Shown here: in pieces, positions 8,217 to 33,198 of the stretch
How positions within the stretch are numbered: position 1 is the first letter of the stretch
Layout: each line of letters begins with the position of its first letter
Assembly (NCBI RefSeq): GCF_030657335.1
Contig: NZ_CP131039.1
Span: forward strand, 1,504,501 to 1,568,500
DNA: 64,000 nucleotides
DNA from: Croceibacterium aestuarii
GTDB lineage: Bacteria; Pseudomonadota; Alphaproteobacteria; Sphingomonadales; Sphingomonadaceae
Direction: 5' to 3'
Translations under genes and position numbers: made by a program
The notes under the pieces: generated by a model
The model's database searches: none
What the model was told of the DNA's origin: nothing
Seen by the model: only the letters and a program-made list of their open reading frames with translations

Positions 8217-8232
8217 ATGATAGCGCTACCAT
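8217..8232. promoter_or_regulatory. LacI-type operator, divergent GH3 / GH67 promoter
   Basis: ATGATAGCGCTACCAT, a near-palindrome around TAGCGCTA. The same element occurs at three other divergent sugar promoters in the window (20379, 27259, 33183). A central CG palindrome is the usual form of a LacI-family operator, and the gene at 10397 is the obvious candidate binder. Confidence 0.8.
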
Positions 8233-10342
8233 GATTATGGGGAGAGGGCTTGTCAATCGTCTGTTGCGGTTGTGTGCGGTCATCGCGGCATTGACCCTGC
8301 CGGGGGTGACGAATGCGGAAGACGGCTATGACCTGTGGCTGCGCTACGCCCCCCTGGCAGAGGACAGGGCGGCCGATACCGCCGCCGCGCTGGGGCCGGT
8401 CCTGGTCGTCTCGGCACCGACGCCGACCATCGCCGCTGCCCGGCGCGAACTGGAGCGCGGGCTCGCCGGAATGCTCGGCGGGCACCGGGCGACCGGTCCG
8501 GGAATCGTGCTCGGGCGGGCGCGCGATCTCGAAGGCGATGCCGCGCGCGAGGCGGCGCCGCTCGATGGCCTGCCGCCGGGCGCCTACCGCATTGCACGCC
8601 TCGCCGATGGCCGGGTGCTCATCGCCGGGAACGACGATAACGGCGTGCTCTACGGCGCTTTCGCATTCCTGCGGCATCTCGGCTCGGGCGAAGGGGTATC
8701 CGCGATCGGCGGGACCTCGGCTCCAGTCTATCCGCTGAGGATGATCGACCACTGGGACAATCCCGGCGGGCCGGTCGAGCGCGGCTATGCCGGGCGTTCG
8801 ATCTTCGACTGGTGGCACCTGCCCGACCATCTCGATCCGCGAATGATCGATTACGCCCGCGCCGAGGCCTCGATCGGCATCAACGGCGTGGTGGTCAACA
8901 ACGTCAACGCCAAAGCCTACCTGCTCGAGCCGCGCTATATCGCCAAACTGGCGCGTCTGGCCGATGCCTGGCGGCCCTACGGCATCCGCGTCTACCTGAG
9001 CGCGCGTTTCTCGGCGCCGATGGAAATCGGCGGGACCGGCACCGCCGACCCGCTCGACCCGCGCGTGCGCGCGTGGTGGAAAGCCAAGGCGGACCAAATC
9101 TACGCGGCAATTCCCGATTTCGGCGGTTTCCTGGTCAAGGCCAACTCCGAAGGCCAGCCCGGACCCCAGGACTACGGGCGCACCCACGCCGACGGGGCCA
9201 ACATGATGGCCGCTGCGCTTGGCAATCGCGGCGTGGTGCTGTGGCGCGCCTTCGTCTACTCGGCCGAGGATTCGACCGACCGTGCGATGCAGGCCTATAA
9301 CGAGTTCGTGCCGCTCGGCGGCAAGTTCGCCGACAACGTGATCCTCCAGGTCAAGAACGGTCCGATCGACTTTCAGCCCCGCGAACCGTTCCACCCGATG
9401 TTCGGGGCGATGCCCCACACGAAGCTCATGCTCGAAGGGCAGATCACCAAGGAGTACCTCGGCTTCGCCACCCACCTGGCGTTTCTTGCGCCGCTCTGGA
9501 AGGAAGTCTTGAGCGTCGATACCGGACGCGGCGGGCCAGTGGCACAGACCATCGCCGGAATGGCCGGCGTCGCTAATACCGGGTCCGATCGCAACTGGTC
9601 CGGATCGCATTTCGACCAGGCCAACTGGTACGCCTTGGGCCGTCTGGCGTGGGATCCGAGCATGAGCAGCGAGCAGATCGCGCGCGAGTGGGCGGCGCAG
9701 ACGTTCAGCCGCGATCCCGCTTTCCTCGCCGAAGTCGTGCCGATGATGCTCGGCAGCCGCCAGGCGGTGGTTGACTACATGACCCCGATGGGGCTCGCTC
9801 ACCAGATGGGCACAGGTCACCATTACGGCCCGGCGCCCTGGGTCTGCGACCTTGCGAGGCCCGAATGGAACCCTTGCTACTACAGCCGCGCCGACGTGCA
9901 GGGCATTGGCTTCGATCGGACTGCAACCGGCAGCAACGCGTTGGCGCAATATGCTCCCTCGGTCGCCTCCAGATGGCGCGATCCGAAGGCGATTGACGAG
10001 GACTACCTGCTCTGGTTCCACCACTTGCCGTGGGATTTCCGCACCCGGTCGGGCCGCGCGCTCTGGCCCGAGCTGGTCCACCGCTACGACCGCGGGGTTG
10101 CGGCAGTCGATGCCATGGCTGCTAAGTGGTCCACTCTCGCGCCCTATGTCGATGGGCAGAGGTTCGAGGACACCGCCGAGTTCCTCGCCATCCAGCAGCG
10201 CGAGGCGCGCTGGTGGCGCGACGCATCGGTCGCTTACTGGCAATCGCTCAATCACTTGCCGCTCCCGCTTGGAGCCGCTCCGCCGGCGCATTCGCTCGAA
10301 TGGTACCAAGCGCTCCGCTTTCCCGATGCACCGGGCGGCTGA
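8231..10342 (+). CDS. aguA: GH67 alpha-glucuronidase
   Basis: About 703 residues. It removes (4-O-methyl-)glucuronic acid from the non-reducing end xylose of aldouronic acids. E307 (KANSEGQPGP), D380 (NGPIDFQPREP) and E408 (GQITKEYLG) have exactly the spacing of the known GH67 catalytic acid and base pair (E292, D365, E393 in the Cellvibrio enzyme). A hydrophobic leader ending near TNA suggests export. The start is uncertain: ATG 8231 and ATG 8237 have no clear ribosome site and overlap the operator, while ggggagagg at 8239-8247 would better serve a TTG about 14 bases later. It leads an operon with the LacI regulator and xylD. Confidence 0.92.
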   Translation: MIMGRGLVNRLLRLCAVIAALTLPGVTNAEDGYDLWLRYAPLAEDRAADTAAALGPVLVVSAPTPTIAAARRELERGLAGMLGGHRATGPGIVLGRARDLEGDAAREAAPLDGLPPGAYRIARLADGRVLIAGNDDNGVLYGAFAFLRHLGSGEGVSAIGGTSAPVYPLRMIDHWDNPGGPVERGYAGRSIFDWWHLPDHLDPRMIDYARAEASIGINGVVVNNVNAKAYLLEPRYIAKLARLADAWRPYGIRVYLSARFSAPMEIGGTGTADPLDPRVRAWWKAKADQIYAAIPDFGGFLVKANSEGQPGPQDYGRTHADGANMMAAALGNRGVVLWRAFVYSAEDSTDRAMQAYNEFVPLGGKFADNVILQVKNGPIDFQPREPFHPMFGAMPHTKLMLEGQITKEYLGFATHLAFLAPLWKEVLSVDTGRGGPVAQTIAGMAGVANTGSDRNWSGSHFDQANWYALGRLAWDPSMSSEQIAREWAAQTFSRDPAFLAEVVPMMLGSRQAVVDYMTPMGLAHQMGTGHHYGPAPWVCDLARPEWNPCYYSRADVQGIGFDRTATGSNALAQYAPSVASRWRDPKAIDEDYLLWFHHLPWDFRTRSGRALWPELVHRYDRGVAAVDAMAAKWSTLAPYVDGQRFEDTAEFLAIQQREARWWRDASVAYWQSLNHLPLPLGAAPPAHSLEWYQALRFPDAPGG

Positions 10343-10396
10343 GATGGCCCGAAAAAACGCTTTTGCCGCCCTCGTGTGCGCCCTAAGGACCTCGCA

Positions 10397-11503
10397 ATGA
10401 GCAAGGGCAAGAGCGAGGGGGCGGCGCGCAAGACCGGGCGGCGGCACAAGGGTGCGCCGACGATCGCCGACGTGGCCCGGCTGGCCCACTGCTCGCCCAT
10501 GACCGTGAGTCGGGTCATCAATGGCGAGGCCAGCGTGCGCGAGGGCACCCGCAATGCGGTGCTCGAGGCCGTACGTCAGCTCAACTATGCGCCCAATCGC
10601 GCGGCCCGTAGTCTCGCCGGCGGCGAACAGCTGCGCATCGCGCTGCTTTTCGACAATCCATCGGCGTCCTACCTCAGCGAATTTCTCATGGGCGCGCTCG
10701 AGGAATCGAGCCGCGGCGACATCCACCTCGAAGTGCAGAGCTGCGAAACCGTGGCCGACGCCACGGTGCTGATGCGCAAGTTGGCGGAAAGCGGTATCCA
10801 GGGCTTCATCCTGCCGCCACCGCTATGCGACGACCAGAGCGTCCTGGATCTCGTTGGAGAACTCGGCGCGGTGGCCGTCGCGGTCGGTCCGGGCAAGGCC
10901 AGCGGATCCGACGCCGCCGTCATGATCGACGACTTTCGCGCCGCCTACGACATGACCAAGCACATTATCGACCTTGGGCATTCCCGCATCGGCTTCATCA
11001 TCGGCAATCCCGAACAGGTCGCCAGCGGGCGGCGCCTCAACGGCTACCGTGCCGCACTCAGCGATGCCGGGATCGAGATCGACGATCAGCTCATCGTACA
11101 GGGACGTTTCACCTATCGCTCGGGGCTCGATGCCGCCGAACGTCTGCTCGCCGCCGAACCGCGACCGACGGCGATCTTCGCCTCGAACGACGACATGGCC
11201 GCCGCGGTGGTGGCGATGGCGCATCGCCGCCACCTCGACGTGCCGAACGACATTACGGTGTGCGGGTTCGACGATACCGACATGGCGCGCACGATCTGGC
11301 CGGAGCTGACCACCATCCGCCAGCCGATCCGCGAAATGACCGCCTGGGCGGTCAATGCGATCGTGCGCATAGTTCGCGCCCGGCGAACGGGCGAAAAGCT
11401 CCAGCCCGAGCACACGACGCTCCCCTACAAACTCGTGCGACGGGAATCCGACGCCGCCCCCAGCCTCGCGGCGCGAAACGCCAGCCGCCCTGGCGCCTCG
11501 TGA
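10397..11503 (+). CDS. LacI-family transcriptional regulator (probable xylose/xylan regulator)
   Basis: 368 residues. An N-terminal LacI helix-turn-helix (TIADVARLAHCSPMTVSRVI, about residues 22-41) with the hinge (YAPNRAARSLAGG) is followed by a periplasmic-binding-protein-like effector domain (VCGFDDTDMA near 290). ATG 10397 has an aagga site at suitable spacing; an in-frame GTG at 10376 lacks one. It lies 54 bp after the glucuronidase and overlaps xylD as GTGA. The four TAGCGCTA palindromes near it are plausible targets, and one lies upstream of its own operon, suggesting autoregulation. The inducer is likely xylose, xylonate or a derivative; this is inferred. Confidence 0.9.
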   Translation: MSKGKSEGAARKTGRRHKGAPTIADVARLAHCSPMTVSRVINGEASVREGTRNAVLEAVRQLNYAPNRAARSLAGGEQLRIALLFDNPSASYLSEFLMGALEESSRGDIHLEVQSCETVADATVLMRKLAESGIQGFILPPPLCDDQSVLDLVGELGAVAVAVGPGKASGSDAAVMIDDFRAAYDMTKHIIDLGHSRIGFIIGNPEQVASGRRLNGYRAALSDAGIEIDDQLIVQGRFTYRSGLDAAERLLAAEPRPTAIFASNDDMAAAVVAMAHRRHLDVPNDITVCGFDDTDMARTIWPELTTIRQPIREMTAWAVNAIVRIVRARRTGEKLQPEHTTLPYKLVRRESDAAPSLAARNASRPGAS

Positions 11504-13287
11504 GCGACGACGGCGAACGCTCGCCGCGGCTGCGCTCGCGCGATTGGTTCGACAACGCCGAGCGCTGGGACCAGACCGCGCTCTACCTCGAGCGGTTCAT
11601 GAACTACGGCGTCACGCCGGAGGAACTGCGTAGCGGCAAGCCGATCATCGGTATCGCCCAGTCGGGCAGCGACCTCAGCCCCTGCAACCGCATCCATCTG
11701 CATCTGGCCAAGCGGACGCGTGACGGAATCCGCGATGCGGGCGGGATTCCGCTCGAGTTCCCGGTCCATCCTATATTTGAGAACTGTCGCCGCCCGACGG
11801 CCGCGCTCGATCGCAACCTGCTCTATCTCGGGCTGGTCGAACTGCTTAACGGCTACCCGATCGACGGCGTCGTGCTGACCACCGGCTGCGACAAGACCAC
11901 GCCGAGCCAGGTCATGGCCGCCAGCACGGTCGACATCCCGGCTATCGTCCTTAGCGGTGGGCCGATGCTCGACGGCTGGCACGAGGGCGAACTGGTCGGC
12001 TCGGGCACGGTCATCTGGCGCAGCCGCCGCAAGCTGGCCGCTGGCGAAATCGACGAGGCGGAGTTCCTCGACCGGGCAACGAGCAGCGCGCCGAGCGCCG
12101 GGCACTGCAATTCGATGGGCACTGCCAGCACGATGAACGCGGTCGCCGAGGCCCTCGGCCTGTCGCTGACCGGGTGCGCTGCGATACCGGCGCCCTATCG
12201 CGAGCGCGGCCAGATTGCCTATCGGACGGGGCGGCGCATCGTCGAGATGGTGCTCGAAGACCTGCGTCCTAGCCGGGTCCTTACTCGCGAAGCCTTTCTC
12301 AACGCGATTGCCACGACAAGTGTGATTGGAGGTTCGTCGAACGCACAGCCGCACATCGTGGCGATGGCGCGCCATGCCGGAGTCGAGCTCGAACCCGAGG
12401 TTTGGCAGCACCACGGCTACGATCTGCCGCTGCTGGTCAACATGCAGCCGGCGGGCAAGTATCTCGGCGAGCGCTTCCACCGCGCCGGCGGTGTTCCCGC
12501 GGCGATGTGGGAGCTGCTGCAGGCCGGCAAGCTGCATGGCGATTGCGTGACCTGCACCGGAAAGACGATGGCCGAGAACCTCGCGGGCCATGAAAGTCCC
12601 GATCGCGAGATGATCCGCCCGTTCGATAATCCGCTGATGGAGCGGGCAGGATTTGTCGTCCTTTCGGGCAACCTGTTCGACTTCGGTATCCTCAAGACCT
12701 CGGTCATCTCCGACGACTTTCGCGGGCGGTACCTGTCGCGGCCGGGTGCCGAGGGTATCTTCGAAGGCCGCGCGGTCGTGTTCGACGGGTCCGACGATTA
12801 CCACCACCGGATCAACGATCCTGCGCTGGGCATCGACGAGGATTCGATCCTCGTCATGCGCGGCTCGGGCGTGATCGGCTGGCCGGGCAGCGCAGAGGTG
12901 GTCAACATGCAGCCGCCCGACGCGCTGATCCGACGCGGGGTGATGTGGCTGCCCACGCTCGGCGACGGCCGCCAATCGGGCACCAGCGACAGCCCGTCGA
13001 TCCTCAATTGCTCGCCCGAAAGCGCGGCGGGCGGTGGACTCGCCTGGCTGCGCGACGGCGACACGATCCGCATCGACCTTAACGCCGGCACCTGCAACGC
13101 GCTGGTGGACGAGGCCGAGATCGCCCGCCGGCTGGCCGAGGAGCCGCCTGCCGCGATCCCGGAATCACAGACGCCATGGGAAGAACTGTACCGCGAGAAA
13201 ACCGGTCAGCTGTCGGAAGGCGGAGTGATGGACATGGCGCTCAAATACCGCGGCACATCGAAAAAGCTGCCGCGCCACAACCACTGA
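11500..13287 (+). CDS. xylD: D-xylonate dehydratase (IlvD/Edd family)
   Basis: 595 residues, close to the size of Caulobacter XylD. It converts D-xylonate to 2-keto-3-deoxy-D-xylonate, third step of the Weimberg pathway. Cysteines C62 (SPCNR), C130 (TTGCDKTTPS) and C203 (AGHCNSMGTAS) match the [2Fe-2S] ligands described for the sugar-acid dehydratases (C60, C128, C201 in the Caulobacter enzyme). The GTG at 11500 shares GTGA with the regulator's stop, so the two are probably translationally coupled. The xylX-A-B-C genes for the other steps are on the facing strand. Confidence 0.93.
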   Translation: MSDDGERSPRLRSRDWFDNAERWDQTALYLERFMNYGVTPEELRSGKPIIGIAQSGSDLSPCNRIHLHLAKRTRDGIRDAGGIPLEFPVHPIFENCRRPTAALDRNLLYLGLVELLNGYPIDGVVLTTGCDKTTPSQVMAASTVDIPAIVLSGGPMLDGWHEGELVGSGTVIWRSRRKLAAGEIDEAEFLDRATSSAPSAGHCNSMGTASTMNAVAEALGLSLTGCAAIPAPYRERGQIAYRTGRRIVEMVLEDLRPSRVLTREAFLNAIATTSVIGGSSNAQPHIVAMARHAGVELEPEVWQHHGYDLPLLVNMQPAGKYLGERFHRAGGVPAAMWELLQAGKLHGDCVTCTGKTMAENLAGHESPDREMIRPFDNPLMERAGFVVLSGNLFDFGILKTSVISDDFRGRYLSRPGAEGIFEGRAVVFDGSDDYHHRINDPALGIDEDSILVMRGSGVIGWPGSAEVVNMQPPDALIRRGVMWLPTLGDGRQSGTSDSPSILNCSPESAAGGGLAWLRDGDTIRIDLNAGTCNALVDEAEIARRLAEEPPAAIPESQTPWEELYREKTGQLSEGGVMDMALKYRGTSKKLPRHNH

Positions 13288-13353
13288 TTCGCGCGCCCAA
13301 GATCGCACCCGGTTGACCCGTCGACAGTGCCCTAGGAGAGAGTTCGCCTGCGC

Positions 13354-13372: not shown

Positions 13373-13376
13373 CGAA

Positions 13377-14231
13377 TTATCCGGCGAGGGTCGCCGAGAT
13401 GCGCAGGGTCAGACTGGCGGTGCACCCGGGGGCGAGCACAGTCATCTCTGCGGGCGCGCGGTTGAGCGCGTCGGGTCCGTGGCTGACGGGCTCGAGGCAC
13501 AGTGCGCTGCCGTCCGCTGGCGCATAGAGATGCAGGAACGGCGCGCCGCGGGCGGTCATCGCGATGCTGCCGAGGTCGTCTTCGATCAACGCGCGACCGC
13601 TCCACCCGGCGAAGCAGTGATCGACGGTTTCAGAGGGCAGGGCGGCGCCCATGTTCGAGTCGGCGAAGCGGGGCGACGCTGCGATCTCCCCGTTTGGGAT
13701 CAAGCCTGCGTCCGCGAGCAACATGCCCGTCGAGCTGAACCGCACGTGCGTTTCCGGGCGACGTCGCACATAGGGATGCAGGCCGAGACCGCAGGGCATC
13801 GGCGTCTCGCTGCGGTTGGTCACGTCGAGCGTGATCGCGCAGCCTTGCGAGCCGAGGCGTATTCGCTGCTCGGCTTCGTAGGACCAGGGCCAGGCATCTG
13901 TGCCGCTGTGGGAGTGTCCGAGCGTGCACTTGAATCCCGCTTCGGCGGTGACCTGCCAGACACTGTGCCAGCCGAGTCCGTGTAGGCTATGCGGCTCGGG
14001 CGGGAAATTCTCCGGCAATTGCACCATGCGGCCGGACCAGGAAAAACGGCCGCCGCGAATCCGGTTGCACCAGGGCACAAGCGGAAAGCAGGCGGATTCG
14101 AGAGGATCGATCGCGCTGCCCGGCATGGTGCGCAGGACGTCCGTCCCGCCCAGACGCAGCGCCGCGAGCGCGCCGCCTGTGTCGGGACGCAGTTCTGCCA
14201 CCCAGTCCCCGGCGCGAAGCGTCAGCGTCAC
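13377..14231 (-). CDS. Aldose 1-epimerase (mutarotase)
   Basis: 284 residues of the galactose-mutarotase-like beta-sandwich. Family signatures are PLVPWCNRIRGGRF near 50, the HSLHGLGW segment near 80, a conserved histidine in GLGLHPYVRR and the catalytic glutamate in LCLEPVSHGPDALNR near the C-terminus. It interconverts the alpha and beta anomers of an aldose, here probably xylose, ahead of oxidation by XylB. Start is the GTG at 14231, sharing GTGA with the esterase stop. It is the last gene of the xylX operon and is convergent with xylD. No signal peptide is visible, so it is cytoplasmic. Confidence 0.87.
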   Translation of the reverse strand: MTLTLRAGDWVAELRPDTGGALAALRLGGTDVLRTMPGSAIDPLESACFPLVPWCNRIRGGRFSWSGRMVQLPENFPPEPHSLHGLGWHSVWQVTAEAGFKCTLGHSHSGTDAWPWSYEAEQRIRLGSQGCAITLDVTNRSETPMPCGLGLHPYVRRRPETHVRFSSTGMLLADAGLIPNGEIAASPRFADSNMGAALPSETVDHCFAGWSGRALIEDDLGSIAMTARGAPFLHLYAPADGSALCLEPVSHGPDALNRAPAEMTVLAPGCTASLTLRISATLAG

Positions 14232-16123: not shown

Positions 16124-17004
16124 CCGAGTTTCACCTTGGGAGTGGCGAAGCCGGCCACGGGGCTGTCGAAGGCCAGCAGGCTGCCGGCGGCCGGATAGTC
16201 GGCTGCGTCGGCCGGTTCGAGGTTCTTGGTCGCGGTGGTGACGTAGGCGGTCCTGAAATCCGGTCCGCCGAGTGTCATCTTGGTAATGTCGCGCGCCGGG
16301 AGCTTCACGGTGGCCACCAGCTTGCCGTCGGGCGAATATCGGGCGACGTGCGAGCCGAAATAGAGCCCGGTCCAGACATGGTCCTCGGCATCGACCATCG
16401 GCCCGTCGGGATAAGCATCGGGGAAATCCTTCGCGACGTCCGCGAACAGCCGCGCCTCGCCCACGCCCGCGGCGGACAGGTCAGCGACCAGGATCTTCTT
16501 GCCCACGGTGTCGGTGAAATAGATTCGGTCACCCGAACCGCTGACCGCGGGCCCGTTGGTGATCGATATGCCGCTCGGCCCGGCCTGGCGGGCCTCGCCC
16601 TTTTCGAAGACGTAGAACCGGCCGCTGGTGTCCTCTTCGGCGTCGTCCATCGAGCCGAACCAGGCGCGGCCCCACGGATCGCTGCAGGCGTCGTTGAGAC
16701 GATTGCCGGCGGGCTCGCCGGGCACGGCCATCAGCTTCTCGAAGGTCTGATGCTCCGGATCGAACGTATAGAGCCCGTCCTGCACTCCGCACAGCAGCAA
16801 GCCGCCTTCGGCCGGTAGCGCCCAGCCGATCTGGCCCGGCGCCTCGGCGCTGGCATTGCTGCCCGTCGCGGGGTCGAAATGCCACAGCAGGTGGCGCTTG
16901 ATGTCGACGCACCACACGACTTGCCGCCCGGCGTCCCACAGCGCGCCTTCGCCCAGCTTGAAGCCGGGCCTGAGAACCTCGTGAACGTCGGTCTCTATCT
17001 CCAT
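16120..17004 (-). CDS. xylC: SMP-30/gluconolactonase family, D-xylonolactonase
   Basis: 294 residues of the six-bladed SMP-30/regucalcin propeller. Metal-site signatures include KLGEGALWD near 14-22, RLNDACSDPWG (Asn/Asp ligands) near 100 and AYPDGPMVDAEDHVW near 200. It hydrolyses D-xylono-lactone made by XylB to D-xylonate. The product class and its position immediately after xylX-xylA-xylB reproduce the Caulobacter xylXABC order. ATG 17004 overlaps the xylB stop by 10 bp. Confidence 0.9.
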   Translation of the reverse strand: MEIETDVHEVLRPGFKLGEGALWDAGRQVVWCVDIKRHLLWHFDPATGSNASAEAPGQIGWALPAEGGLLLCGVQDGLYTFDPEHQTFEKLMAVPGEPAGNRLNDACSDPWGRAWFGSMDDAEEDTSGRFYVFEKGEARQAGPSGISITNGPAVSGSGDRIYFTDTVGKKILVADLSAAGVGEARLFADVAKDFPDAYPDGPMVDAEDHVWTGLYFGSHVARYSPDGKLVATVKLPARDITKMTLGGPDFRTAYVTTATKNLEPADAADYPAAGSLLAFDSPVAGFATPKVKLG

Positions 17005-17756: not shown

Positions 17757-17784
17757 CGGTTTGAAAACCCCTTCGGCCAAGTCC

Positions 17785-19224: not shown

Positions 19225-19232
19225 GGTCAATC

Positions 19233-20378: not shown

Positions 20379-20394
20379 GTGATAGCGCTACCAT
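20379..20394. promoter_or_regulatory. LacI-type operator, divergent xylX / GH43 promoter
   Basis: GTGATAGCGCTACCAT, differing from the copy at 8217 only in its first base. It lies between the divergent xylX operon and the GH43 gene and so could control both. Confidence 0.82.
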
Positions 20395-24703: not shown

Positions 24704-27198
24704 GGCAGGACCTTCTCCGCGTCGGTCCCGAGCCGCACCTCGGCGAGCGCATAGTCTGCCGGACCGGTGGTCTCGAGAATGAACGGCGCGGTGACCTTGC
24801 TCATATCGGCGCCCTTCGATGCCAGGCACTTGAGCGGGATCCCGTAACGAACGAACGTACCGCTGGCGGGCAGCGTGACCGGTTCGCGCGAGCCGCATCC
24901 CGATCCCTCGCAGCGCAGCGCGACCGCCGCCCTCGCGGGCGCCTTGTTCACTTTTACCGTGAACAGCACCATCACGTCGGCATTGGTCTCGCGGCCGAGG
25001 TCGAGCGGATCGTGGCTGGACACCGCCAGTGCGGCGCCGCCGTCCTTGACCTCGATCCGGCGCGCGCCTTCCTGCACCGCGGCATCGGTCGCGGTGATGT
25101 GCGCCCGTCCACCGATGGCATCCGCCGGGACCGTGGTGATGCGCTTTTCCTCGGCGCGGTCGATGTTGCCGAGCACCAACGACCAGCTTGCGGTTGGAAC
25201 GCCCCTGGCGAAATAGATCCGCGCGTCGCCAGCTTTGCTGTCGGCGATTTCGGGCAGCGGCTTCCACGCCGCGCGCGGCGCAGCATAAGTCAGGCCGTAG
25301 CCGAAGGGAAAGAGTGCGCCATCGGCCATCGCCGGGGTCTTCGGCCAGGCTGCGGGGAGCTTGCCGGTGAAGTCGAACCGGGTCTTGCCCGCGGCATCGC
25401 CGATCAGCACGTCGGCCAGGCCTTTGCCGCCTTCGCTTCCGGGAAGCCACGCCACCACGAAGGCATCGGCGGCGTTGAGCGCCGGGTTCACGTAGAGCGG
25501 ACGGCCGGTGATCATCACCGCGACGACCGGAATGCCCTGCGCCCTGAGCTTCTTCATGGTGGCGTAGGGACCGGTGAGGTCGGCATCGAGTGCCAGCGTC
25601 GCGCGGTCGCCCTGGAACTCGGCATAGGGCTTCTCGCCGAAGACCACCACGGCCGCATCGGGCTTCTCGGAGAAGCTGCCATCGGGCGAGAGCGTCGCGC
25701 TGCCGCCGCCGGCCTCAGCGGCCTGCTTGAGGCCGGCCCATAGCGAGGTCGAGCCCGGGAACATCGCGTTGGTCAGACCTGTACCCTGCCACGAGATGGT
25801 CCACCCGCCCGAAGCGCGGGCGACGTCGTCCGCTCCTTCGCCGGCGACGAGCAGGCGCGCACCTGCCTTGAGCGGCAGCACGCCCTGGTTCTTGAGCAGG
25901 ACGAGCGACTTGCGCACCGCCTCGCGGGCGAGTTCGCGGTGTTGGGGAGAGCCGAGCACTTTCCAATCGCCGGCGAGCGGGCGGCTGGAGGGCTTGCCCG
26001 CCTCGAACACCCCGAGCCGGAACTTGACGCGCAGAATGCGCGAGACGGCATCGTCGATCCGCTGCATCGGGATTTCGCCCGCCTTGGCGCGTCTGAGCAG
26101 GTCTTCGTAGATCGCCTTCCAGCTGTCGGGCGCCATGTACATGTCGAGCCCGGCGAGCAGCGCCTGCGGGCACGCGCTGTTGGTGCAGCCCTCGACCTGG
26201 CCGTGCGCGTTCCAGTCGGAGACGACGAAACCGCCGAAACCCATCCGGTCCTTGAGCACGTCGGTGATCAGCGACTTGTTGCCGGTCAGCTTCTTGCCTT
26301 GCCAGCTCGAGAAGCTGACCATGACCGTGGCGACGCCGTTTTCGATCGCCGGGCCGTAGGGCAGGCCGTGAATGTCGCGCAGATCCTCTTCGGAAATCTG
26401 CGCATCGCCCTGGTCGACGCCGTCCTTGGTGCCGCCGTCGGCCAGGAAGTGCTTGGTCGAGGCGATGACCTTGTCGCGCGCCAGCAGGTTGGCCTGGTCG
26501 GGCGGCCCCTGCAGCCCGCGGACCATCGCCCCGACATAGGATGCGACGAGCTTGGGATCCGAGGAGTAGCCCTCATAGGCGCGGCCCCAGCGGTAGTCCT
26601 GCGGCACGGTGACCGTTGGCGCGAAGGTCCATTCCTGCCCGGTCACGCGCACTTCCTGTGCCGTTGCAGCGCCGATCCGTTCGATCAGGGCGGGATCGTG
26701 GGCGGCGCCGAGGCCAATGTTGTGCGGGAAAACCGTAGCGCCGATGATGTTGGCGTGGCCGTGAACCGCGTCGATCCCCCAGATGACGGGGATGCCTGCG
26801 CCCCCGTCGCGCTTGTCGACCGAGGCGAGGTAGAACGCGTCCGCCGCCTTGAGCCAGTCGGGCGCCGGCGCGAAATCGTTGCCGTTCGGGCCGCTGTTGC
26901 CGCCGACGAGGATCGAGCCGAGGTTGTACTCGCGCACCTCCTCGGGGGTGACGCAGCACAGGTCGGCCTGGATCAGCTGGCCGATCTTGTCCTCCAGCGT
27001 CATCGTCTTGAGCAGGTCGGCGATCTTCGCCTCGACCGCCGGATCGACGGGCACGGGATACTCGTACTTGGGCCAGATTTCGGGGTGGGCGACGGCATCG
27101 CCTTGCGCCGAAGCGGTATCGCCGGGCAAGGCATCCTGCGAACAGGCGTTGAGCAACAGCGCGGCACCGACCAGCGCGAATCGCAGCGGACGTTTCAA
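24694..27198 (-). CDS. GH3 exo-beta-glucosidase, lipoprotein
   Basis: 834 residues with a lipoprotein signal (LLLNACSQ). This is a different GH3 branch from the tandem pair near the left end: it carries GIDAVHGHANIIGATVFPHN, KHFLADGGT and a VVSDWNAHGQ nucleophile segment, the pattern of exo-1,3/1,4-beta-glucosidases, and a long C-terminal carbohydrate-binding-like extension instead of the fibronectin-III end. I start it at the TTG at 27198, which sits just after aggggagaag; an ATG at 27216 would include that sequence in the protein. First gene of a minus-strand operon with the esterase and GH5, opposite a LacI-type operator. Confidence 0.89.
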   Translation of the reverse strand: MKRPLRFALVGAALLLNACSQDALPGDTASAQGDAVAHPEIWPKYEYPVPVDPAVEAKIADLLKTMTLEDKIGQLIQADLCCVTPEEVREYNLGSILVGGNSGPNGNDFAPAPDWLKAADAFYLASVDKRDGGAGIPVIWGIDAVHGHANIIGATVFPHNIGLGAAHDPALIERIGAATAQEVRVTGQEWTFAPTVTVPQDYRWGRAYEGYSSDPKLVASYVGAMVRGLQGPPDQANLLARDKVIASTKHFLADGGTKDGVDQGDAQISEEDLRDIHGLPYGPAIENGVATVMVSFSSWQGKKLTGNKSLITDVLKDRMGFGGFVVSDWNAHGQVEGCTNSACPQALLAGLDMYMAPDSWKAIYEDLLRRAKAGEIPMQRIDDAVSRILRVKFRLGVFEAGKPSSRPLAGDWKVLGSPQHRELAREAVRKSLVLLKNQGVLPLKAGARLLVAGEGADDVARASGGWTISWQGTGLTNAMFPGSTSLWAGLKQAAEAGGGSATLSPDGSFSEKPDAAVVVFGEKPYAEFQGDRATLALDADLTGPYATMKKLRAQGIPVVAVMITGRPLYVNPALNAADAFVVAWLPGSEGGKGLADVLIGDAAGKTRFDFTGKLPAAWPKTPAMADGALFPFGYGLTYAAPRAAWKPLPEIADSKAGDARIYFARGVPTASWSLVLGNIDRAEEKRITTVPADAIGGRAHITATDAAVQEGARRIEVKDGGAALAVSSHDPLDLGRETNADVMVLFTVKVNKAPARAAVALRCEGSGCGSREPVTLPASGTFVRYGIPLKCLASKGADMSKVTAPFILETTGPADYALAEVRLGTDAEKVLPCN

Positions 27199-27258
27199 GA
27201 CAGCTTCTCCCCTCATGCCGCGCCATCCGTCCACCGGAATTGTCGCAACCAGAAACCT

Positions 27259-27274
27259 ATGGTAGCGCTATCAT
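27259..27274. promoter_or_regulatory. LacI-type operator, divergent GH3 / GH5 promoter
   Basis: ATGGTAGCGCTATCAT, the exact reverse complement of the copy at 8217. It lies between divergent GH3 and GH5 genes, 61 bp and 25 bp from their starts. Confidence 0.82.
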
Positions 27275-27298: not shown

Positions 27299-27314
27299 AT
27301 GGTAGAGCTAACAT
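27299..27314. promoter_or_regulatory. Degenerate second LacI-type operator overlapping the GH5 start codon
   Basis: ATGGTAGAGCTAACAT matches the operator at 27259 in 14 of 16 positions, 40 bp downstream centre to centre, and begins on the GH5 start codon. The centre GAGC is broken, so it would be a weak auxiliary site at best. Confidence 0.35.
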
Positions 27315-28642
27315 TCCCGATTTGCGGCCGCCGCACGGCCCTGGCCGGCCTCGCGGCGGCGGGTCTGGCTGGGTGCAGCGGCGCGCGCGGCGTCCTGGCG
27401 CCCCCCAAGCGCTTCGTTGCGACAAGGGGCATGCGCTTCGTGCGGGGCGGCGGGTGGTATCGCTACACCGGCGCCAACGCCTGGTACCTTGCCTGGCTTG
27501 GCAGCGACACGAAATACGGCGATCGGGCGCGGCTGAGGCGCGAACTCGACCGCCTGCAGTCGATCGGCGTCGGCAACGTGCGCCTGCTCGCGGGAGCCGA
27601 GGAGAGCCCGGTAAAGAACAGCATCAAGCCCGGCTTCGAAACGCAGGACGGCACGCTCAACCGGTCTCTTCTGACCGGTCTCGACGTGGCCATGGCCGAA
27701 CTCGGCAAGCGCGGAATGACCGCGGTGCTCTATCTCACCAACAACTGGGAATGGTCGGGCGGCATGATGAGCCGGCTCTATTGGGAAACCGGCCGGTACA
27801 AGGACATGAACGATCCGGCCGATCCCTGGCCCGCGTTCCCCGACGCCGCCAGTGCGTTCTATGCCAATCGGGACGCGGTTGAGCGCTTCTTTCGCTCGGT
27901 GCGCATGCTTGTCGGGCGGACCAACACCGTAACCGGAACGGCCTACAAGGACGATCCCGCGTTGATGGCCTGGCAGCTCGCCAACGAACCGCGTCCGGGC
28001 GTATCGCCGGAGGTCATGCAGGCGATCCTCCCTGACTACTACAGGTGGATCGACGACAGCGCTGCGCTGATTCGCTCGCTCGACCCGAACCATCTCGTCT
28101 CGCTCGGTATGGAAGGCACGATTGCTACCGATGGGGACGTCGAGATCGTCGCCCGCGCCCACCGCAACATCGATTACCTGACCGCGCATATCTGGCCGCT
28201 CAACTGGGGCTGGGTCGATGGCAAGGATCTCGCCGGCACCTGGGCTGCCGGTGCGGCCAAGGTGAGGGATTACATCGATAGGCACGTCAAGCTCGCCGCA
28301 ACGCTGGGCAAGCCGCTGGTGTTCGAGGAATTTGGCTTTCCGCGCGACGGCGAACTCTACGATCCTGCGGCGACGACCCAGTTTCGCCAACGCTTCTACC
28401 GGATGATCTACGCCGCCGCAGAAGCCAGTCGCGCCGCCGGGGGGCCGGTGCAGGGCACAAATTTCTGGGCCTGGAACGGCGAAGCGCGAGCGCAACACCC
28501 GGATCACCGCTTTCGGGACGGCGAGACCCAGTACATGGGCGACCCGCCGCACGAGCCGCAGGGGTGGTACGGAAATTTCGACAGCGACGACGCGGTGATT
28601 GCGATTGTGCGACAGCACGCACAGACCTTTGCCACCGCCTGA
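27299..28642 (+). CDS. GH5 beta-mannanase-like glycoside hydrolase, Tat/lipoprotein signal
   Basis: 447 residues. The barrel has acid/base glutamate in AWQLANEPRPG near 228, nucleophile in VFEEFGFPRDG near 350, and YLTNNWEWSGG and NFWAWNGEA segments as in GH5_7 endo-beta-mannanases. The N-terminus has a twin arginine (GRRTALAGLAA) and a lipobox ending LAGC. ATG 27299 has gggaagagg upstream; the TTG at 27278 has none. It adds mannan to the polymers this locus can attack and shares its promoter region with the GH3 operon. A following MFS gene 39 bp downstream is likely co-transcribed. Confidence 0.87.
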   Translation: MVELTFPICGRRTALAGLAAAGLAGCSGARGVLAPPKRFVATRGMRFVRGGGWYRYTGANAWYLAWLGSDTKYGDRARLRRELDRLQSIGVGNVRLLAGAEESPVKNSIKPGFETQDGTLNRSLLTGLDVAMAELGKRGMTAVLYLTNNWEWSGGMMSRLYWETGRYKDMNDPADPWPAFPDAASAFYANRDAVERFFRSVRMLVGRTNTVTGTAYKDDPALMAWQLANEPRPGVSPEVMQAILPDYYRWIDDSAALIRSLDPNHLVSLGMEGTIATDGDVEIVARAHRNIDYLTAHIWPLNWGWVDGKDLAGTWAAGAAKVRDYIDRHVKLAATLGKPLVFEEFGFPRDGELYDPAATTQFRQRFYRMIYAAAEASRAAGGPVQGTNFWAWNGEARAQHPDHRFRDGETQYMGDPPHEPQGWYGNFDSDDAVIAIVRQHAQTFATA

Positions 28643-28681
28643 CGGGGATGGCTGCGCGCATTCGAGGGGAGGGACTGCATC

Positions 28682-30262
28682 TTGGTGACGGCTCTCAGCG
28701 ATCGCCGGGCGGCGGGCGTGTTCGTCCTCGGAGTCATCGCCGTAACCGCCGGCGTGCTGATGCATCTGCCGATGTTCCTCGTGGCTCGCGACATGGGCTA
28801 CCGGCTCAACGGTATGGGGATGGGCCCGGAGATGGTCTGGGGCATGGTCTTGATCGTCGCGGGGGTCGCCGTCGCCGCTTACGGCTTGCTGCCCAGGAAT
28901 GTCGCAGCCCAGGTTGCCGCCTCGCGCACAATCGTCGTCTCCCCGCCCGAAGACGCGCCGCTGTCGGCAGCGCACTGGCGGCTGATGCTGGTGCTGGTGC
29001 TCGCACTGGTCATCGATGTGATGAAACCGTCGAGTCTGGGTTTCACGATCCCCGGCATGATCGACGAGTACCGGCTCGGCAGACAGGTCGTCTCGCTCGT
29101 CCCGCTGTTCGCGCTCCTCGGCACCGCGACGGGATCGGTCCTGTGGGGGATGATTGCAGACGTTTACGGGCGCAAGGCTTCGATCCTGCTTTCGGCGGTC
29201 GTGTTCGTGGGCACCTCGATCTGCGGGGCGATGCCCTCGCTGGCCTGGAACGTCGGGATGTGTTTCCTGATGGGGTTGGGGGCGGGCGGTATGCTTCCCG
29301 TCACCTATGCCTTGCTCGCCGAGATGATGCCGTCGAAACACCGCGGCTGGAGCCTGGTCCTCGTCGGCGGACTTGGCTCGGTGGGTGGATACTTCGCTGC
29401 AAGCGGACTCGCGGCCACGCTGGTTCCGGCGTACAGTTGGCGCGTCTTGTGGCTGGTCAATCTGCCGACAGGCCTTGCCCTGGTCGCACTCGGCGGGCTG
29501 ATTCCCGAATCCGCCAAATTCCTTCTCGCCCGGGGCCGCAACCGCGAAGCGCAGCGGATTATGGCGACGTTCGGCTCGGAGGCGCGTACGCCCGGCGAGG
29601 CCGTGAAAGCGCAGACTGTCCGGGGCGGATCCGACCCGCTGACCGGGTTCGCCCTGTTCGCCAAGCTCTTCGCTCTCAGCATGGCGGCCGCGTGCTACGG
29701 TCTCATCAATTTCGGGCTGCTGCTCTGGCTTCCCGCCGATCTGCTTGCCAAGGGCTATAGCATCGAGTTGTCGAGCCGCCTGCTGGCCGAATCCGCGTTG
29801 ATCGCCTTGCCGACCATTCTGTTCGCCGCCTGGGGCTATAGCCGGTGGAGTTCCAAGCGGTCGGTCCTTGTCGCGCTGGCGGTGACCATTGTCGGCCTTC
29901 TGCTCGTGCTGCGGCTGGAGATCGCGGGGCGAGGGAGCCCGGTCATCCCGGTCGCCTTGCTGATCATCGGCACCAACGCGCTGATCGCCATGCTGCTACC
30001 CTATGCTGCCGAGAGCTTTCCGTTTCGAATTCGCGGCCGGGCGACCGGAGTTGTGGCCGCTTGCAGCAAGGGGGGCGGGGTGCTCGCGCAAGTCTTTGCG
30101 GTCCTCGCGTTGGTACCGGCGATGGGGGCCGTTTCGCTGGCCCTGCTGATACCCGCGGTGACGGCGCTCGTTCTCGTCACCCTGTTTGGCCGGGAAATCC
30201 GCGGCCGCGACCTGCGCGACCTCGACGTTGACGGTCACACGTTCCACGCGGCCGGCATCTAG
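28682..30262 (+). CDS. MFS sugar/aromatic-acid type transporter with extra N-terminal membrane segments
   Basis: 526 residues. The core has 12 predicted helices with the cytoplasmic ADVYGRKAS loop and a PESAKFLLARGR segment, as in sugar-porter and AAHS-type families. About 95 residues with two hydrophobic segments precede it (GVFVLGVIAVTAGVLMHLP and VWGMVLIVAGVAVAAYGLL), which is not usual. Start is a TTG at 28682 (or GTG 28685) after gaggggaggg. It follows the GH5 gene by 39 bp and ends overlapping the uxuB stop. It may import the monosaccharide or disaccharide products; substrate unknown. Confidence 0.82.
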   Translation: MVTALSDRRAAGVFVLGVIAVTAGVLMHLPMFLVARDMGYRLNGMGMGPEMVWGMVLIVAGVAVAAYGLLPRNVAAQVAASRTIVVSPPEDAPLSAAHWRLMLVLVLALVIDVMKPSSLGFTIPGMIDEYRLGRQVVSLVPLFALLGTATGSVLWGMIADVYGRKASILLSAVVFVGTSICGAMPSLAWNVGMCFLMGLGAGGMLPVTYALLAEMMPSKHRGWSLVLVGGLGSVGGYFAASGLAATLVPAYSWRVLWLVNLPTGLALVALGGLIPESAKFLLARGRNREAQRIMATFGSEARTPGEAVKAQTVRGGSDPLTGFALFAKLFALSMAAACYGLINFGLLLWLPADLLAKGYSIELSSRLLAESALIALPTILFAAWGYSRWSSKRSVLVALAVTIVGLLLVLRLEIAGRGSPVIPVALLIIGTNALIAMLLPYAAESFPFRIRGRATGVVAACSKGGGVLAQVFAVLALVPAMGAVSLALLIPAVTALVLVTLFGREIRGRDLRDLDVDGHTFHAAGI

Positions 30263-31626
30263 GCGAGCTTTCGGGTCAGCTCGGCGAGCGTCGCCTCGCC
30301 GGCGCGCCAGCTATCCGCAAACAGACCGCCCGGACCGAACAGCGCCGCGGCGATTCCCGAGCGTCCGGCTGTTCGCCACAGCTCCGCGAGGTGCGCGGCC
30401 ATGGGGTCGTCGACCGCCCCGCGGTCGCCGCGGACATAGCGCATCCAGGACGCCAGCGCCTCCAGCAGCGCGGGACAGCGCTCGCCGCGCGCGTCATGCG
30501 CGCGAAGGGTCTCGAGCCAACGCTGCGGGATCTTCTCGCTGCCGTCGGCCGCGATCTGGGCGAGGCGGTGCTCGAGCGCGGGGTTGGCGAAGCGAGCGAT
30601 CAGGTCGGCGGCGTAGCGGCGAAGGTCCTGTCCCTCGGCGGGGACGAAACTCGTGGCCGCTTCCTCGAGCATGAGCCGTTCGACCAGTGCGCGAAGCTCC
30701 TCGTCGGCAATCGCCTGGTCGACGAACCCGTGACCCCGCTCGAGCCCGAGATAGGCCATGGCGGAATGGGCGCCGTTGAGCATTCTGAGCTTGGCGGTTT
30801 CGTACGGCGCGACATCGCCGACCAGCCGCGCACCATGCCTGTCCCATCCGGGGCGCGGCCCGGCGAAGCGATTCTCGATGATCCACTGGCTGAACGGCTC
30901 GGTGAAGACCGCGCCTTCGTCTCGAACGCCGAGCCGACCTTCGAGCGCGGCCAGGTCGGCTTCGGTCGCCGCCGGGACGATCCGGTCGACCATCGAGTTC
31001 GGACAGGCGCATTCGCCATCGAACCAGCGGACCGTGTCGGGGGCATGCGCGGCGAGCCATTCGGCCAGCAGCCGGGCAAGGACCTCGCCGTTGCGCGGAA
31101 GGTTATCGCACGAAAGCAAAGTCAGGCCGGGAAGGTTCCTACGCATCCGTTGGCGCAGGCACTCGGCCAGGTGCGGATAGAAGCTTCTCCCTGCAAGCTC
31201 GAGATCGAGCGAGCCGTCGGGCCTGCGGGCGTAACCCTTTTCGGTGACGGTGAAGCTGACGATCCGCGTCGAGGGCGCGGTGAGGGCGATTGCCAGCCTT
31301 TCCGGGCTCCGGTCCGCCACGATCGCTTCGCGTAGCGCACCGACGACCCGCGTCGCCTCGCCGGCCGCGCCCCGCTCGGTCAGCGTGTAGAGCCCGCCTT
31401 GCGGATCCAGCCGGCGCGCCACCGCGTCCGATCGCAGGGAAGCGCCGGCAATCGCCCAATCGCGCTCGCCGCCGCTCATTGCGAGGTCCGTGTACCACGC
31501 CTGGTGCGCGCGGTGGAACGCGCCGAGGCCGAAGTGGACGATCCCGACCTTTTGCTCGTCGCGGTCGTAATCGAAACGGGCGACGTCGGGCGGAAGCAGG
31601 TTCAGGATCGCAGGCGAGAGCCTCAC
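30259..31626 (-). CDS. uxuB: D-mannonate oxidoreductase (fructuronate reductase)
   Basis: 455 residues of the long-chain mannitol dehydrogenase family. It reduces D-fructuronate to D-mannonate with NADH. Family signatures are GIVHFGLGAFHRAHQAWY near 29, LLSCDNLPRNGE near 170, the NSMVDRIVP motif near 213 and KLRMLNGAHSAMAYLG near 280. Start is GTG 31626. It lies 118 bp downstream of uxaC on the same strand, completing glucuronate to fructuronate to mannonate; manD and kdgK on the other side of the shared promoter continue the route. Confidence 0.92.
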   Translation of the reverse strand: MRLSPAILNLLPPDVARFDYDRDEQKVGIVHFGLGAFHRAHQAWYTDLAMSGGERDWAIAGASLRSDAVARRLDPQGGLYTLTERGAAGEATRVVGALREAIVADRSPERLAIALTAPSTRIVSFTVTEKGYARRPDGSLDLELAGRSFYPHLAECLRQRMRRNLPGLTLLSCDNLPRNGEVLARLLAEWLAAHAPDTVRWFDGECACPNSMVDRIVPAATEADLAALEGRLGVRDEGAVFTEPFSQWIIENRFAGPRPGWDRHGARLVGDVAPYETAKLRMLNGAHSAMAYLGLERGHGFVDQAIADEELRALVERLMLEEAATSFVPAEGQDLRRYAADLIARFANPALEHRLAQIAADGSEKIPQRWLETLRAHDARGERCPALLEALASWMRYVRGDRGAVDDPMAAHLAELWRTAGRSGIAAALFGPGGLFADSWRAGEATLAELTRKLA

Positions 31627-31744
31627 CGCCCCGCCTCGTCACCGTGAAATCGCTTCAGGGTCCATTTTTCGGTCCGCGCCGTCTGTGCAGGCGGCTTGAT
31701 CGATCGCGGATCACGTTCGGGATGACGACCTTTGGAATGGTGCT

Positions 31745-33130
31745 TCACAACCGGTAGGCCGCTTTCGCCAGATCGTAAGACAGCGCGCGCGCGACCTCGT
31801 GCGCTTCGTCGAGTTCGAGCCGATGCTCGGCGACCAGCTCGGCGAGAAAGCCGCAGTCGATGCGCCGCGCGACGTCGTGCCGCGCCGGGATCGACAGGAA
31901 GGCGCGGGTGTCGTCGTTGAACCCGACTGTGTTGTAGAAGCCGGCGGTCTCCGTGGTCATGCGGCGGAAGCGGCGCATGCCCTCGGGGCTGTCGTGGAAC
32001 CACCAGGCCGGGCCGAGCCTGAGGCAGGGATAGTGCCCGGCGAGCGGGGCCAGTTCGCGGGAATAGGCGCTCTCGTCGAGGGTGAAGAGGATCAGCGTGA
32101 AATCGCGCTCGTTGCCGAACCGGTCGAGCAGCGGCTTGAGCGCCGCAACATAGTCGGTGCGGGTGGGAATGTCGGCGCCCTTGTCGCGCCCGTGAACGGC
32201 AAACAGTTTGGCGTTGTGGTTGCGAAAGCTGCCGGGATGAATCTGCATCACCAGGCCGTCATCCTGGCTCATTGCCGCCATCTCGGTAAGCATCTGAGCC
32301 CGAAACAGTTCGGCGTCCCCTTCGGAGAAATCGCCGGCGACAATCTTCCCGAACAAGGCCTCCGCCTCGGCGGACGAAAGGTCGGCGGTGCGTGCGGTAG
32401 GATGGCCGTGGTCGGAAGAAGTGGCGCCCATTGCGGCGAAGAAGGCACGCCGCTTGCGGTGCGCCGAAAGGTAGCCGCGCCAGTCGTGGCAATTCTCGCC
32501 GGTCAGCACGGAGAGAGCCGACAAGTTGGCCGCGAAGCCTTCGAACTCGGGATCGACCACCGGGTCGGGGCGGTAAGCGGTTACGACCCTACCTCGCCAG
32601 CCGCTCTCGCGGATCGAGCGATGCTGGTCGAGGGTATCCAGGGGGCTCTCGGTCGTGGCGATAACTTCGATACCGAAGCGCTCGAACAGGGCGCGGGGAC
32701 GAAATGCATCGCTCTCCAGCGCCTCGGTGATGCGATCGTAATAGAGGTCCGCCGTTTCGCCTTCGAGCCGCACGTCCAGTCCGAAAACCTCGGCGAAGAC
32801 CCAATCGAGCCACAGCCGCGACGGGGTGCCGCGAAACAGCGCGTAGTTCTCCGCCAGGATGCGCCAGGCCTCGCGCGGGTCGGCGGGCGCGCCGATGCCA
32901 AGCTGTTCGAGCCGCACGCCCTGCGAATACAACATGCGCAGCAGGTAATGGTCGGGCTGCAGCAACAGCTGCGCCGCGTTGCCGAACGGCGCGTTCGTTG
33001 CAAACCACGCAGGGTCGGTGTGTCCGTGCGGGCTTATGATGGGCAAGCCGCACACCTCGTCATAGATCTCGCGCGCGATTCTCCTCACGCCGGGGTCGGC
33101 AGGAAACAGCCGGTCTGCGTGAAGTTTCAA
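31745..33130 (-). CDS. uxaC: Glucuronate isomerase
   Basis: 461 residues, close to the usual 470. It isomerises D-glucuronate to D-fructuronate. Signatures are HADRLFPADPGVRR at the N-terminus, LPIISPHGHTDPAWFA (metal histidines), and GRDKGADIPTRTDY and PAWWFHDSPEGMRRF late in the protein. The family start pattern points to the TTG at 33130, although the gggaga site lies 17 bp upstream; an upstream extension in frame has no homology. First gene of a minus-strand uxaC-uxuB unit, 52 bp from a LacI-type operator. Confidence 0.93.
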   Translation of the reverse strand: MKLHADRLFPADPGVRRIAREIYDEVCGLPIISPHGHTDPAWFATNAPFGNAAQLLLQPDHYLLRMLYSQGVRLEQLGIGAPADPREAWRILAENYALFRGTPSRLWLDWVFAEVFGLDVRLEGETADLYYDRITEALESDAFRPRALFERFGIEVIATTESPLDTLDQHRSIRESGWRGRVVTAYRPDPVVDPEFEGFAANLSALSVLTGENCHDWRGYLSAHRKRRAFFAAMGATSSDHGHPTARTADLSSAEAEALFGKIVAGDFSEGDAELFRAQMLTEMAAMSQDDGLVMQIHPGSFRNHNAKLFAVHGRDKGADIPTRTDYVAALKPLLDRFGNERDFTLILFTLDESAYSRELAPLAGHYPCLRLGPAWWFHDSPEGMRRFRRMTTETAGFYNTVGFNDDTRAFLSIPARHDVARRIDCGFLAELVAEHRLELDEAHEVARALSYDLAKAAYRL

Positions 33131-33182
33131 GCGTTGGATGGGCCCAATCTCCCGTGTTGACCTTTCGCCTGCCCCTAGCGCA

Positions 33183-33198
33183 ATGGTAGCGCTAACGG
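33183..33198. promoter_or_regulatory. LacI-type operator, divergent uxaC / manD promoter
   Basis: ATGGTAGCGCTAACGG keeps the left arm and core of the other sites (ATGGTAGCGCTA) with two changes in the last three bases. It places both arms of glucuronate catabolism under the same regulator as xylan degradation. Confidence 0.78.

What the first reader, a model, noticed from the sequence alone, without database searches (positions are those of the whole stretch)
8217..33198. One 16-bp LacI-type operator links xylan attack, the Weimberg pathway and glucuronate catabolism
ATGRTAGCGCTAYCAT-like palindromes occur at 8217, 20379, 27259 and 33183, each inside a divergent promoter, and I saw none elsewhere. 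The genes under them are GH3/GH67/lacI/xylD, xylX operon/GH43, GH3/GH5 and uxaC-uxuB/manD-kdgK. LacI-family operators are known to be such palindromes. The inference is a single regulon that treats xylose and glucuronate, the two parts of glucuronoxylan, as one signal.
Basis: partly seen in the sequence, partly recalled or inferred. Interest (0 to 1): 0.7.

Follow-up and report, generated by a model that had tools for sequence, protein, structure and literature searches.

The report
Xylose repressor also controls glucuronate genes
The repeated DNA motif is the already known binding site of a xylose-sensing repressor (XylR), and in this bacterium and its close relatives the same switch also sits in front of the genes for the other sugar of wood xylan, glucuronate: a modest extension of a known system.

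Summary
The four palindromes are real and far above chance. They are the "xyl-box" of XylR, the LacI-type xylose repressor known from Caulobacter and Xanthomonas. As a 14-mer (TGDTAGCGCTAHCA) the window has three perfect sites and two with one mismatch (27300, 33184). The genome has 11 sites with at most one mismatch, all at sugar-use or TonB-uptake genes. The genome has only two LacI-family genes; one lies inside this regulon. In relatives a site precedes xylX in 19 of 19 cases. The weakest site, 33183 between uxaC and manD, is conserved in 9 genomes of 3 genera (13 of 14 columns invariant, against 10 of 53 other intergenic columns) and fits a single gain in a UxaC tree. Most other uxaC loci examined lack it; several have a GntR or another LacI regulator beside uxaC. 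A distant clade put glucuronate genes under the same box by another route, operon fusion. So the single-regulon claim holds for this lineage. "One signal" is likely but untested, and probably means xylose standing in for glucuronate. Known kind, with a lineage-specific extension.

The parts
10397..11503 (+). XylR: LacI-type repressor, the presumed binder of all sites
   Evidence: Pfam LacI and Peripla_BP_3; one of two LacI-family genes in the genome; orthologs go with the motif in relatives
8217..8232 (.). xyl-box between GH3 (-) and GH67 (+); overlaps the first ATG of GH67
   Evidence: 0 mismatches; site upstream of the GH3 ortholog in 16 of 16 and of GH67 in 13 of 14 relatives
20379..20394 (.). 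xyl-box between xylX operon (-) and GH43 (+)
   Evidence: 1 mismatch to the 16-mer, 0 to the 14-mer; upstream of xylX in 19 of 19 relatives
27259..27274 (.). xyl-box between GH3 (-) and GH5 (+)
   Evidence: 0 mismatches; upstream of the GH3 ortholog in 13 of 14 relatives
27299..27314 (.). weaker second box, 40 bp further, overlapping the GH5 start codon
   Evidence: 2 mismatches to the 16-mer, 1 to the 14-mer
33183..33198 (.). xyl-box between uxaC (-) and manD (+)
   Evidence: 3 mismatches to the 16-mer, 1 to the 14-mer; conserved in 9 genomes, 13 of 14 columns invariant
5762..8173 (-). GH3 enzyme, first gene of the left-hand operon
   Evidence: Pfam
3372..5600 (-). second GH3 enzyme (upstream end approximate)
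   Evidence: Pfam
2065..3375 (-). MFS transporter nearest to the D-galactonate transporter model, candidate glucuronate importer
   Evidence: Pfam and NCBIfam, below the curated cut-off; under an xyl-box by gene order in several relatives
893..2050 (-). GH10 xylanase (start approximate)
   Evidence: Pfam
8231..10342 (+). GH67 alpha-glucuronidase
   Evidence: Pfam GH67 domains
11500..13287 (+). XylD-type sugar acid dehydratase (start approximate)
   Evidence: Pfam ILVD_EDD, NCBIfam subfamily
13377..20357 (-). xylX operon: xylX (19233-20357), aldehyde dehydrogenase, SDR (XylB), lactonase (XylC), esterase, epimerase
   Evidence: Pfam; single genes overlap as drawn by longest reading frames
20450..22114 (+). 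GH43 beta-xylosidase-like
   Evidence: Pfam
24694..27200 (-). GH3 enzyme (upstream end approximate)
   Evidence: Pfam
27299..28642 (+). GH5 mannosidase-like enzyme
   Evidence: phmmer 4.3e-101 to Man5A 1uuq
31745..33139 (-). uxaC, glucuronate isomerase; probable non-ATG start (ATC at 33137-33139)
   Evidence: Pfam and NCBIfam equivalog; start comparison
30259..31626 (-). uxuB-like fructuronate reductase
   Evidence: Pfam, NCBIfam best match PRK15037 below its cut-off
33217..34425 (+). manD, D-mannonate dehydratase
   Evidence: NCBIfam equivalog ManD over the cut-off
34427..35365 (+). kdgK-like sugar kinase
   Evidence: Pfam PfkB, best NCBIfam match KdgK below its cut-off

Best explanation
The motif is the operator (xyl-box) of XylR, the LacI-type repressor encoded at 10397-11503. 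Without inducer XylR sits on the palindromes and blocks the divergent promoters for xylan attack (GH3, GH10, GH43, GH67), uptake (TonB receptors, MFS porters), the Weimberg pathway (xylX operon, xylD) and glucuronate breakdown (uxaC-uxuB, manD-kdgK). Xylose set free from xylan binds XylR and opens all promoters together. Glucuronate cut off by GH67 arrives with xylose, so xylose serves as the signal for both. Shown: sites, their placement, their rarity in the genome, their conservation together with XylR, and the conservation of the uxaC/manD site in 9 genomes. Inferred: binding by this protein, repression, xylose as the effector.
For: Site counts against shuffles; 11 genomic sites with at most 1 mismatch, all at sugar-use or TonB-uptake genes; two LacI-family genes in the genome; in 23 relatives 113 sites, 98 of them upstream of the listed orthologs, against a mean of 1.0 (largest 14) for 60 permuted palindromes; uxaC/manD site in 9 genomes with 13 of 14 invariant columns against 10 of 53, one group in the tree, a XylR ortholog in all nine; same sequence as the published xyl-box.
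Against: No binding or expression data. The 33183 site is the weakest of the four. Most uxaC loci examined lack it (28 of 38); in the relatives it precedes uxaC in 2 of 10 and manD in 1 of 8. The sites outside the window at the epimerase/arabinofuranosidase pair (0 of 2 and 1 of 4) and at the oxidoreductase (1 of 3) are poorly conserved. In a Caulobacter MAG with a 55% identical LacI protein the strict motif is absent and a different core, TACCGGTA, stands before xylX. No sigma-70-like promoter was found at 33100-33260.
Confidence: 0.85

Rival explanations
1. The glucuronate genes answer to XylR and also to a second, glucuronate-sensing regulator that was not recognised, so that two signals meet at one promoter.
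For: Relatives have GntR or other LacI regulators beside uxaC or manD; a Caulobacter MAG has both a palindrome and a GntR-like word between manD and GH67.
Against: No such regulator lies beside uxaC or manD in this genome; of its 3 FCD-type GntR matches the two compared are at most about 31% identical to the uxaC-linked clade, the third was not compared. Other regulator families were not searched.
Confidence: 0.25
2. The 33183 palindrome is a chance look-alike and the glucuronate genes are outside the regulon.
For: It is the weakest site, and most uxaC loci lack it.
Against: 13 of 14 columns stay invariant in 9 genomes while 43 of 53 neighbouring columns vary; the one variable column is a position the motif leaves free.
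Confidence: 0.05
3. The second LacI-family protein (3070203) binds these sites instead of, or besides, the one at 10397.
For: It is the only other LacI-family protein in the genome.
Against: It stands beside a GH3 and an MFS gene with a different palindrome-like word upstream; the motif travels with orthologs of the window protein.
Confidence: 0.04

Closest known systems
XylR regulon of Caulobacter crescentus (Stephens et al. 2007; not held, recalled; described in passages of PMC7198004, PMC10380989, PMC1790865)
   Same: LacI-type repressor, short palindromic operator (14 bp in PxylX), Weimberg-pathway xylX operon, TonB receptors; released by xylose according to PMC10380989
   Different: Here the box also stands between uxaC and manD; whether C. 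crescentus has this could not be checked
XylR / xyl-box xylan utilisation system of Xanthomonas campestris (Dejean et al. 2013; not held, recalled; described in passages of PMC7748154, PMC10380989, PMC3826837)
   Same: Same box sequence TGGTAGCGCTAACA (one own-genome site, 1501857, is identical), XylR repressor, TonB receptors, alpha-glucuronidase in the xylan loci
   Different: Xanthomonas uses xylose isomerase, this genome the Weimberg pathway; I recall glucuronate genes in the Xanthomonas xylan loci but could not verify it
UxuR-like GntR/FCD regulators beside uxaC or manD in sphingomonad relatives
   Same: Regulators standing beside the same uxaC/manD genes (G191, G179, G117, G203, G499, G433, G108, G056)
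   Different: No regulator of that clade was found in this genome; the xyl-box stands in the uxaC/manD promoter instead. Their function is inferred from position only

Membership tests
XylR (xyl-box) regulon | LacI-family repressor with LacI-type HTH and sugar-binding domain inside the regulon | tested here: met
   Pfam PF00356 and PF13377 for 10397-11503
XylR (xyl-box) regulon | Operator of the published form TGGTAGCGCTAACA | tested here: met
   Identical at 1501857; window sites differ at the free positions, 33184 also at its last base
XylR (xyl-box) regulon | Sites at xylan, xylose and TonB-receptor genes | tested here: met
   conserved in relatives
XylR (xyl-box) regulon | Orthology of the regulator to C. 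crescentus CC3065 or X. campestris XylR | tested here: inconclusive
   Those two sequences are not held; homologs of a Caulobacter MAG (55%) and a Phenylobacterium MAG (57%) lie next to xylX, but the Caulobacter one goes with a different core
XylR (xyl-box) regulon | Binding to the sites and release by xylose | not testable with these tools
   Needs gel shifts or expression data
UxuR-type control of glucuronate genes | FCD-type GntR regulator of the uxaC-linked clade in the genome or beside uxaC | tested here: not met
   3 FCD matches in the genome, none beside uxaC; the two compared are at most about 31% identical to the clade, the weak third one (256693) was not compared

The most novel reading that the evidence does not exclude
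In these sphingomonads glucuronate catabolism came under the xylose-sensing XylR at least twice and by different routes: once by an operator between uxaC and manD (9 genomes, one origin), once by joining manD-transporter-uxaC to the GH3 operon opposite GH67-xylR (Sphingobium-type clade). Such bacteria would not sense glucuronate at all and would need xylose to use it. In the first lineage uxaC also lacks an ATG or GTG at its conserved start, so its output may be damped at translation too.
Probability: 0.4. Interest if true: 0.55.

Novelty: new member of a known kind. Interest (0 to 1): 0.42.

Why it matters
It names the likely regulator and operator of xylan use in environmental bacteria with the Weimberg pathway, and gives a clean case of regulon rewiring, in which the signal for one pathway may have been replaced by a companion sugar of the same polymer. 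It makes a sharp prediction: xylose, not glucuronate, switches on uxaC and manD, and glucuronate alone should be used poorly unless XylR is removed.

Tried and rejected
Rejected: that the motif is unspecific; that the second LacI protein is the binder; that the 33183 site is chance. The reversed-pattern counts of the genome search, which exceed the motif counts, were set aside as an unfair control and are reported here.

Led nowhere: no sigma-70-like promoter at 33100-33260. I found no statement on whether the Caulobacter or Xanthomonas XylR regulon includes uxaC, uxuA or uxuB (paper searches, of which I saw listings; passages of PMC4052901, PMC7198004, PMC10766802, PMC10380989, PMC7748154, PMC3826837, PMC1790865, PMC12125979; one section of PMC7198004). 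Stephens 2007, Hottes 2004 and Dejean 2013 are not held: nothing of them was seen.

Rows dropped: BLAST matches shorter than 40% of the query (35%); also matches under 45% identity or with an upstream window running off the stretch. 24 relatives were searched for sites and uxaC but stretches were fetched from 23 of them (G134 not). Only 100-odd places of the longer pattern listings were shown. Of the 17 genome sites with exactly 2 mismatches I looked closely only at 1658865. One search found uxaC in 126 of 397 genomes; loci were examined for 28 of them, with 10 more (38 genomes), and further stretches with a slightly different pattern. One search covered 37 of those 38 loci (L210 left out) and found its motif in 36. 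Several named loci are the same genomes as G handles, so the two sets are not independent.
Full report
What is there. Shuffles of the window give 0.28 matches at up to 3 mismatches on average (largest 2), against 6 found. The two extra matches are 27299, overlapping the start codon of the GH5 gene, and 50609, inside a reading frame. Trimmed to 14 bp, TGDTAGCGCTAHCA, the window has three perfect sites (8218, 20380, 27260) and two with one mismatch (27300, 33184).

Genome context. The window lies at 1504501-1568500 of a 3.35-Mb single-contig genome. Of 28 genome sites at up to 2 mismatches, 11 have at most 1. The six outside the window are 1481749 (aldose epimerase and alpha-L-arabinofuranosidase), 1492793 (sugar porter), 1501857 (a large gene running into the window, taken as a TonB receptor from its conservation; divergent from a tryptophan-halogenase-family gene), 1658966 and 1658986 (TonB receptor, SapC, cupin and halogenase-family genes) and 2088568 (Gfo/Idh/MocA oxidoreductase). 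The first TonB receptor was not itself run against Pfam; the second was. The core TAGCGCTA occurs 12 times, 10 of them in this set; the other two lack the flanks. The reversed-pattern counts of the tool are larger than the motif counts (81 against 28; 144 against 12), since ATCGCGAT is a common word here; I do not take them as a fair control, but they are a result.

The regulator. The genome has two LacI-family genes: 10397-11503, and one at 3070203 beside a GH3 and an MFS gene with a different palindrome-like word upstream. In 296 genomes of the order, 203 have a match to the window protein at E <= 1e-40; the nearest are 60-78% identical.

Conservation. From 23 relatives I fetched 30 stretches (1.1 Mb) around this regulator and around uxaC and mapped orthologs and sites. 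There are 113 sites with at most one mismatch, 98 of them upstream of the listed orthologs and 2 inside coding matches; 60 permuted palindromes of the same composition average 1.0 (largest 14). Sites precede xylX in 19 of 19, the GH3 next to GH67 in 16 of 16, the TonB receptor in 15 of 15, the sugar porter in 14 of 14, GH67 in 13 of 14, the second GH3 in 13 of 14 and GH43 in 10 of 12. Less conserved: oxidoreductase 1 of 3, arabinofuranosidase 1 of 4, epimerase 0 of 2, uxaC 2 of 10, manD 1 of 8, uxuB 0 of 10, kdgK 0 of 2, GH5 (the 27278 gene) 0 of 6. The stretches were chosen for holding the regulator or uxaC, so this shows that motif and regulator go together, not how common the motif is at large. 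In 80 named loci with a homolog of the regulator there are 118 sites, against 4 for the reversed pattern. Not all homologs go with this box: many Massilia-type loci show none, and a Caulobacter MAG (L198) has TACCGGTA-centred palindromes instead.

The glucuronate arm. Of 24 relatives searched, 10 have uxaC, and 2 of 10 have a site upstream: G019, at the same place between manD and uxaC, and G100, about 260 bp upstream and, by my reading of the sequence, inside the start of a divergent lipoprotein-like frame. A search of 397 genomes of the family found uxaC in 126. I examined 28 of those loci plus the 10, 38 genomes in all: 10 of 38 have a site close upstream, namely the own genome, G409, G437, G368 (same genus), G466, G487, G412, G374 (a second genus), G019 (a third) and G100. 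In the first nine the site lies between divergent manD and uxaC; 13 of its 14 columns are invariant against 10 of 53 other intergenic columns, and the one variable column (C, A or T) is a position the motif leaves free. All nine have an ortholog of the regulator (the eight others 61-92% identical). In a maximum-likelihood tree of 47 UxaC proteins the nine form one group (support 95/99; 92% of bootstrap trees), so one gain is enough.

What other relatives do. GntR/FCD regulators of one clade stand directly before uxaC in G191, G179, G117, G203 and one of two copies in G499, about 1 kb before it in G433, and beside manD in G108 and G056; no xyl-box was seen before uxaC in these eight. A different LacI protein (35-39% identity) stands near uxaC in G236, G039, G148 and G250. 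G025, G174 and G509 have divergent manD and uxaC, no site, and no regulator recognised beside them. In a distant group the glucuronate genes are under the box by another route: GH3-GH3-manD-transporter-uxaC-uxuB reads away from GH67-xylR with a site between in G263 and G224. Six Sphingobium-type loci (L163, L164, L179, L189, L190, L195) show the same order with a near-consensus site, uxaC being visible only in L195, whose stretch ends inside it; L168 has transporter and uxaC under a perfect site. G263, G224 and L168 lie in a separate branch of the UxaC tree, with G290 among them. So the coupling arose at least twice.

Comparison with what is known. The box is the published xyl-box: TGGTAGCGCTAACA for X. 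campestris as quoted in PMC7748154 and PMC10380989 (passages). XylR of C. crescentus is a LacI-type repressor with a 14-bp operator in PxylX (PMC7198004, passages and one section), and leaves the box in the presence of xylose (PMC10380989, passage). A palindrome shared by the xylose regulons of C. crescentus and X. campestris, also at TonB receptor genes, is reported in PMC1790865 (passages). I therefore file this under the XylR regulon, with orthology to those two proteins not directly tested. I did not find the uxaC/manD box in print, but the three key papers are not held, so this is no proof of novelty; I recall glucuronate genes in the Xanthomonas xylan loci.

How it probably works. XylR on the palindromes blocks the divergent promoters; xylose from xylan frees them. 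GH67 cuts glucuronate off xylo-oligosaccharides, so glucuronate comes together with xylose and one repressor suffices. The box at 8217 probably also commands an MFS transporter (2065-3375) whose best model is a galactonate transporter, a fair candidate for glucuronate uptake; by gene order it is under an xyl-box in G019, G025, G108, G236 and L120, and in L145 and L147 (G437 and G374) as well. Shown: sites, placement, rarity, conservation. Inferred: binding, repression, xylose as effector, and which gene starts are used.

Verdict. The regulon inference is well supported for this lineage. The operator itself is known. 'One signal' is best read as xylose standing in for glucuronate, and is untested.

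Noticed in passing
window 33137-33139 (uxaC start); loci L200-L207 and L040: In the nine genomes with the uxaC/manD xyl-box the conserved uxaC start is never ATG or GTG: CTG in five, TTG in two, ATT in G409, ATC in the own genome; in 27 other loci it is ATG (24), GTG (2) or TTG (1). Start positions are read from the alignment; in two of the nine (G437, G412) an in-frame GTG lies a few codons upstream, and the own genome has an in-frame TTG three codons downstream.
   Followed up: partly
G236:C30:154298-155497: A manD homolog (68%) sits in the GH3-transporter-GH10 gene row downstream of the GH67/xylR xyl-box, while uxaC of that genome lies elsewhere without a site: another variant of glucuronate genes drawn to the XylR locus.
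   Followed up: no
L198 (uncultured Caulobacter sp. MAG), upstream of xylX and between manD and GH67: The strict xyl-box is missing; TGATACCGGTAACA and TGATACCGGTATCA stand there instead, the latter beside a GntR-like word, although the LacI protein is 55% identical and has the same SPMTVSR helix. The operator core may have shifted.
   Followed up: no
G000:C1:3070203 (L009): The only other LacI-family gene stands beside a GH3 gene and an MFS gene, with the palindrome-like word GTGAACGTTATC upstream; probably a separate small beta-glucoside regulon.
   Followed up: no
G000:C1:1658864-1658999 (L004): Three boxes within about 135 bp (one weaker) before a TonB receptor, SapC, cupin and halogenase-family gene row: the densest cluster of sites seen in the genome.
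   Followed up: no
G000:C1:1487577-1488437 (L002:77-937): A GntR/FCD regulator beside an esterase and a second IlvD/Edd-type dehydratase, between two xyl-box sites; a 69% identical protein lies near xylR in G100.
   Followed up: no
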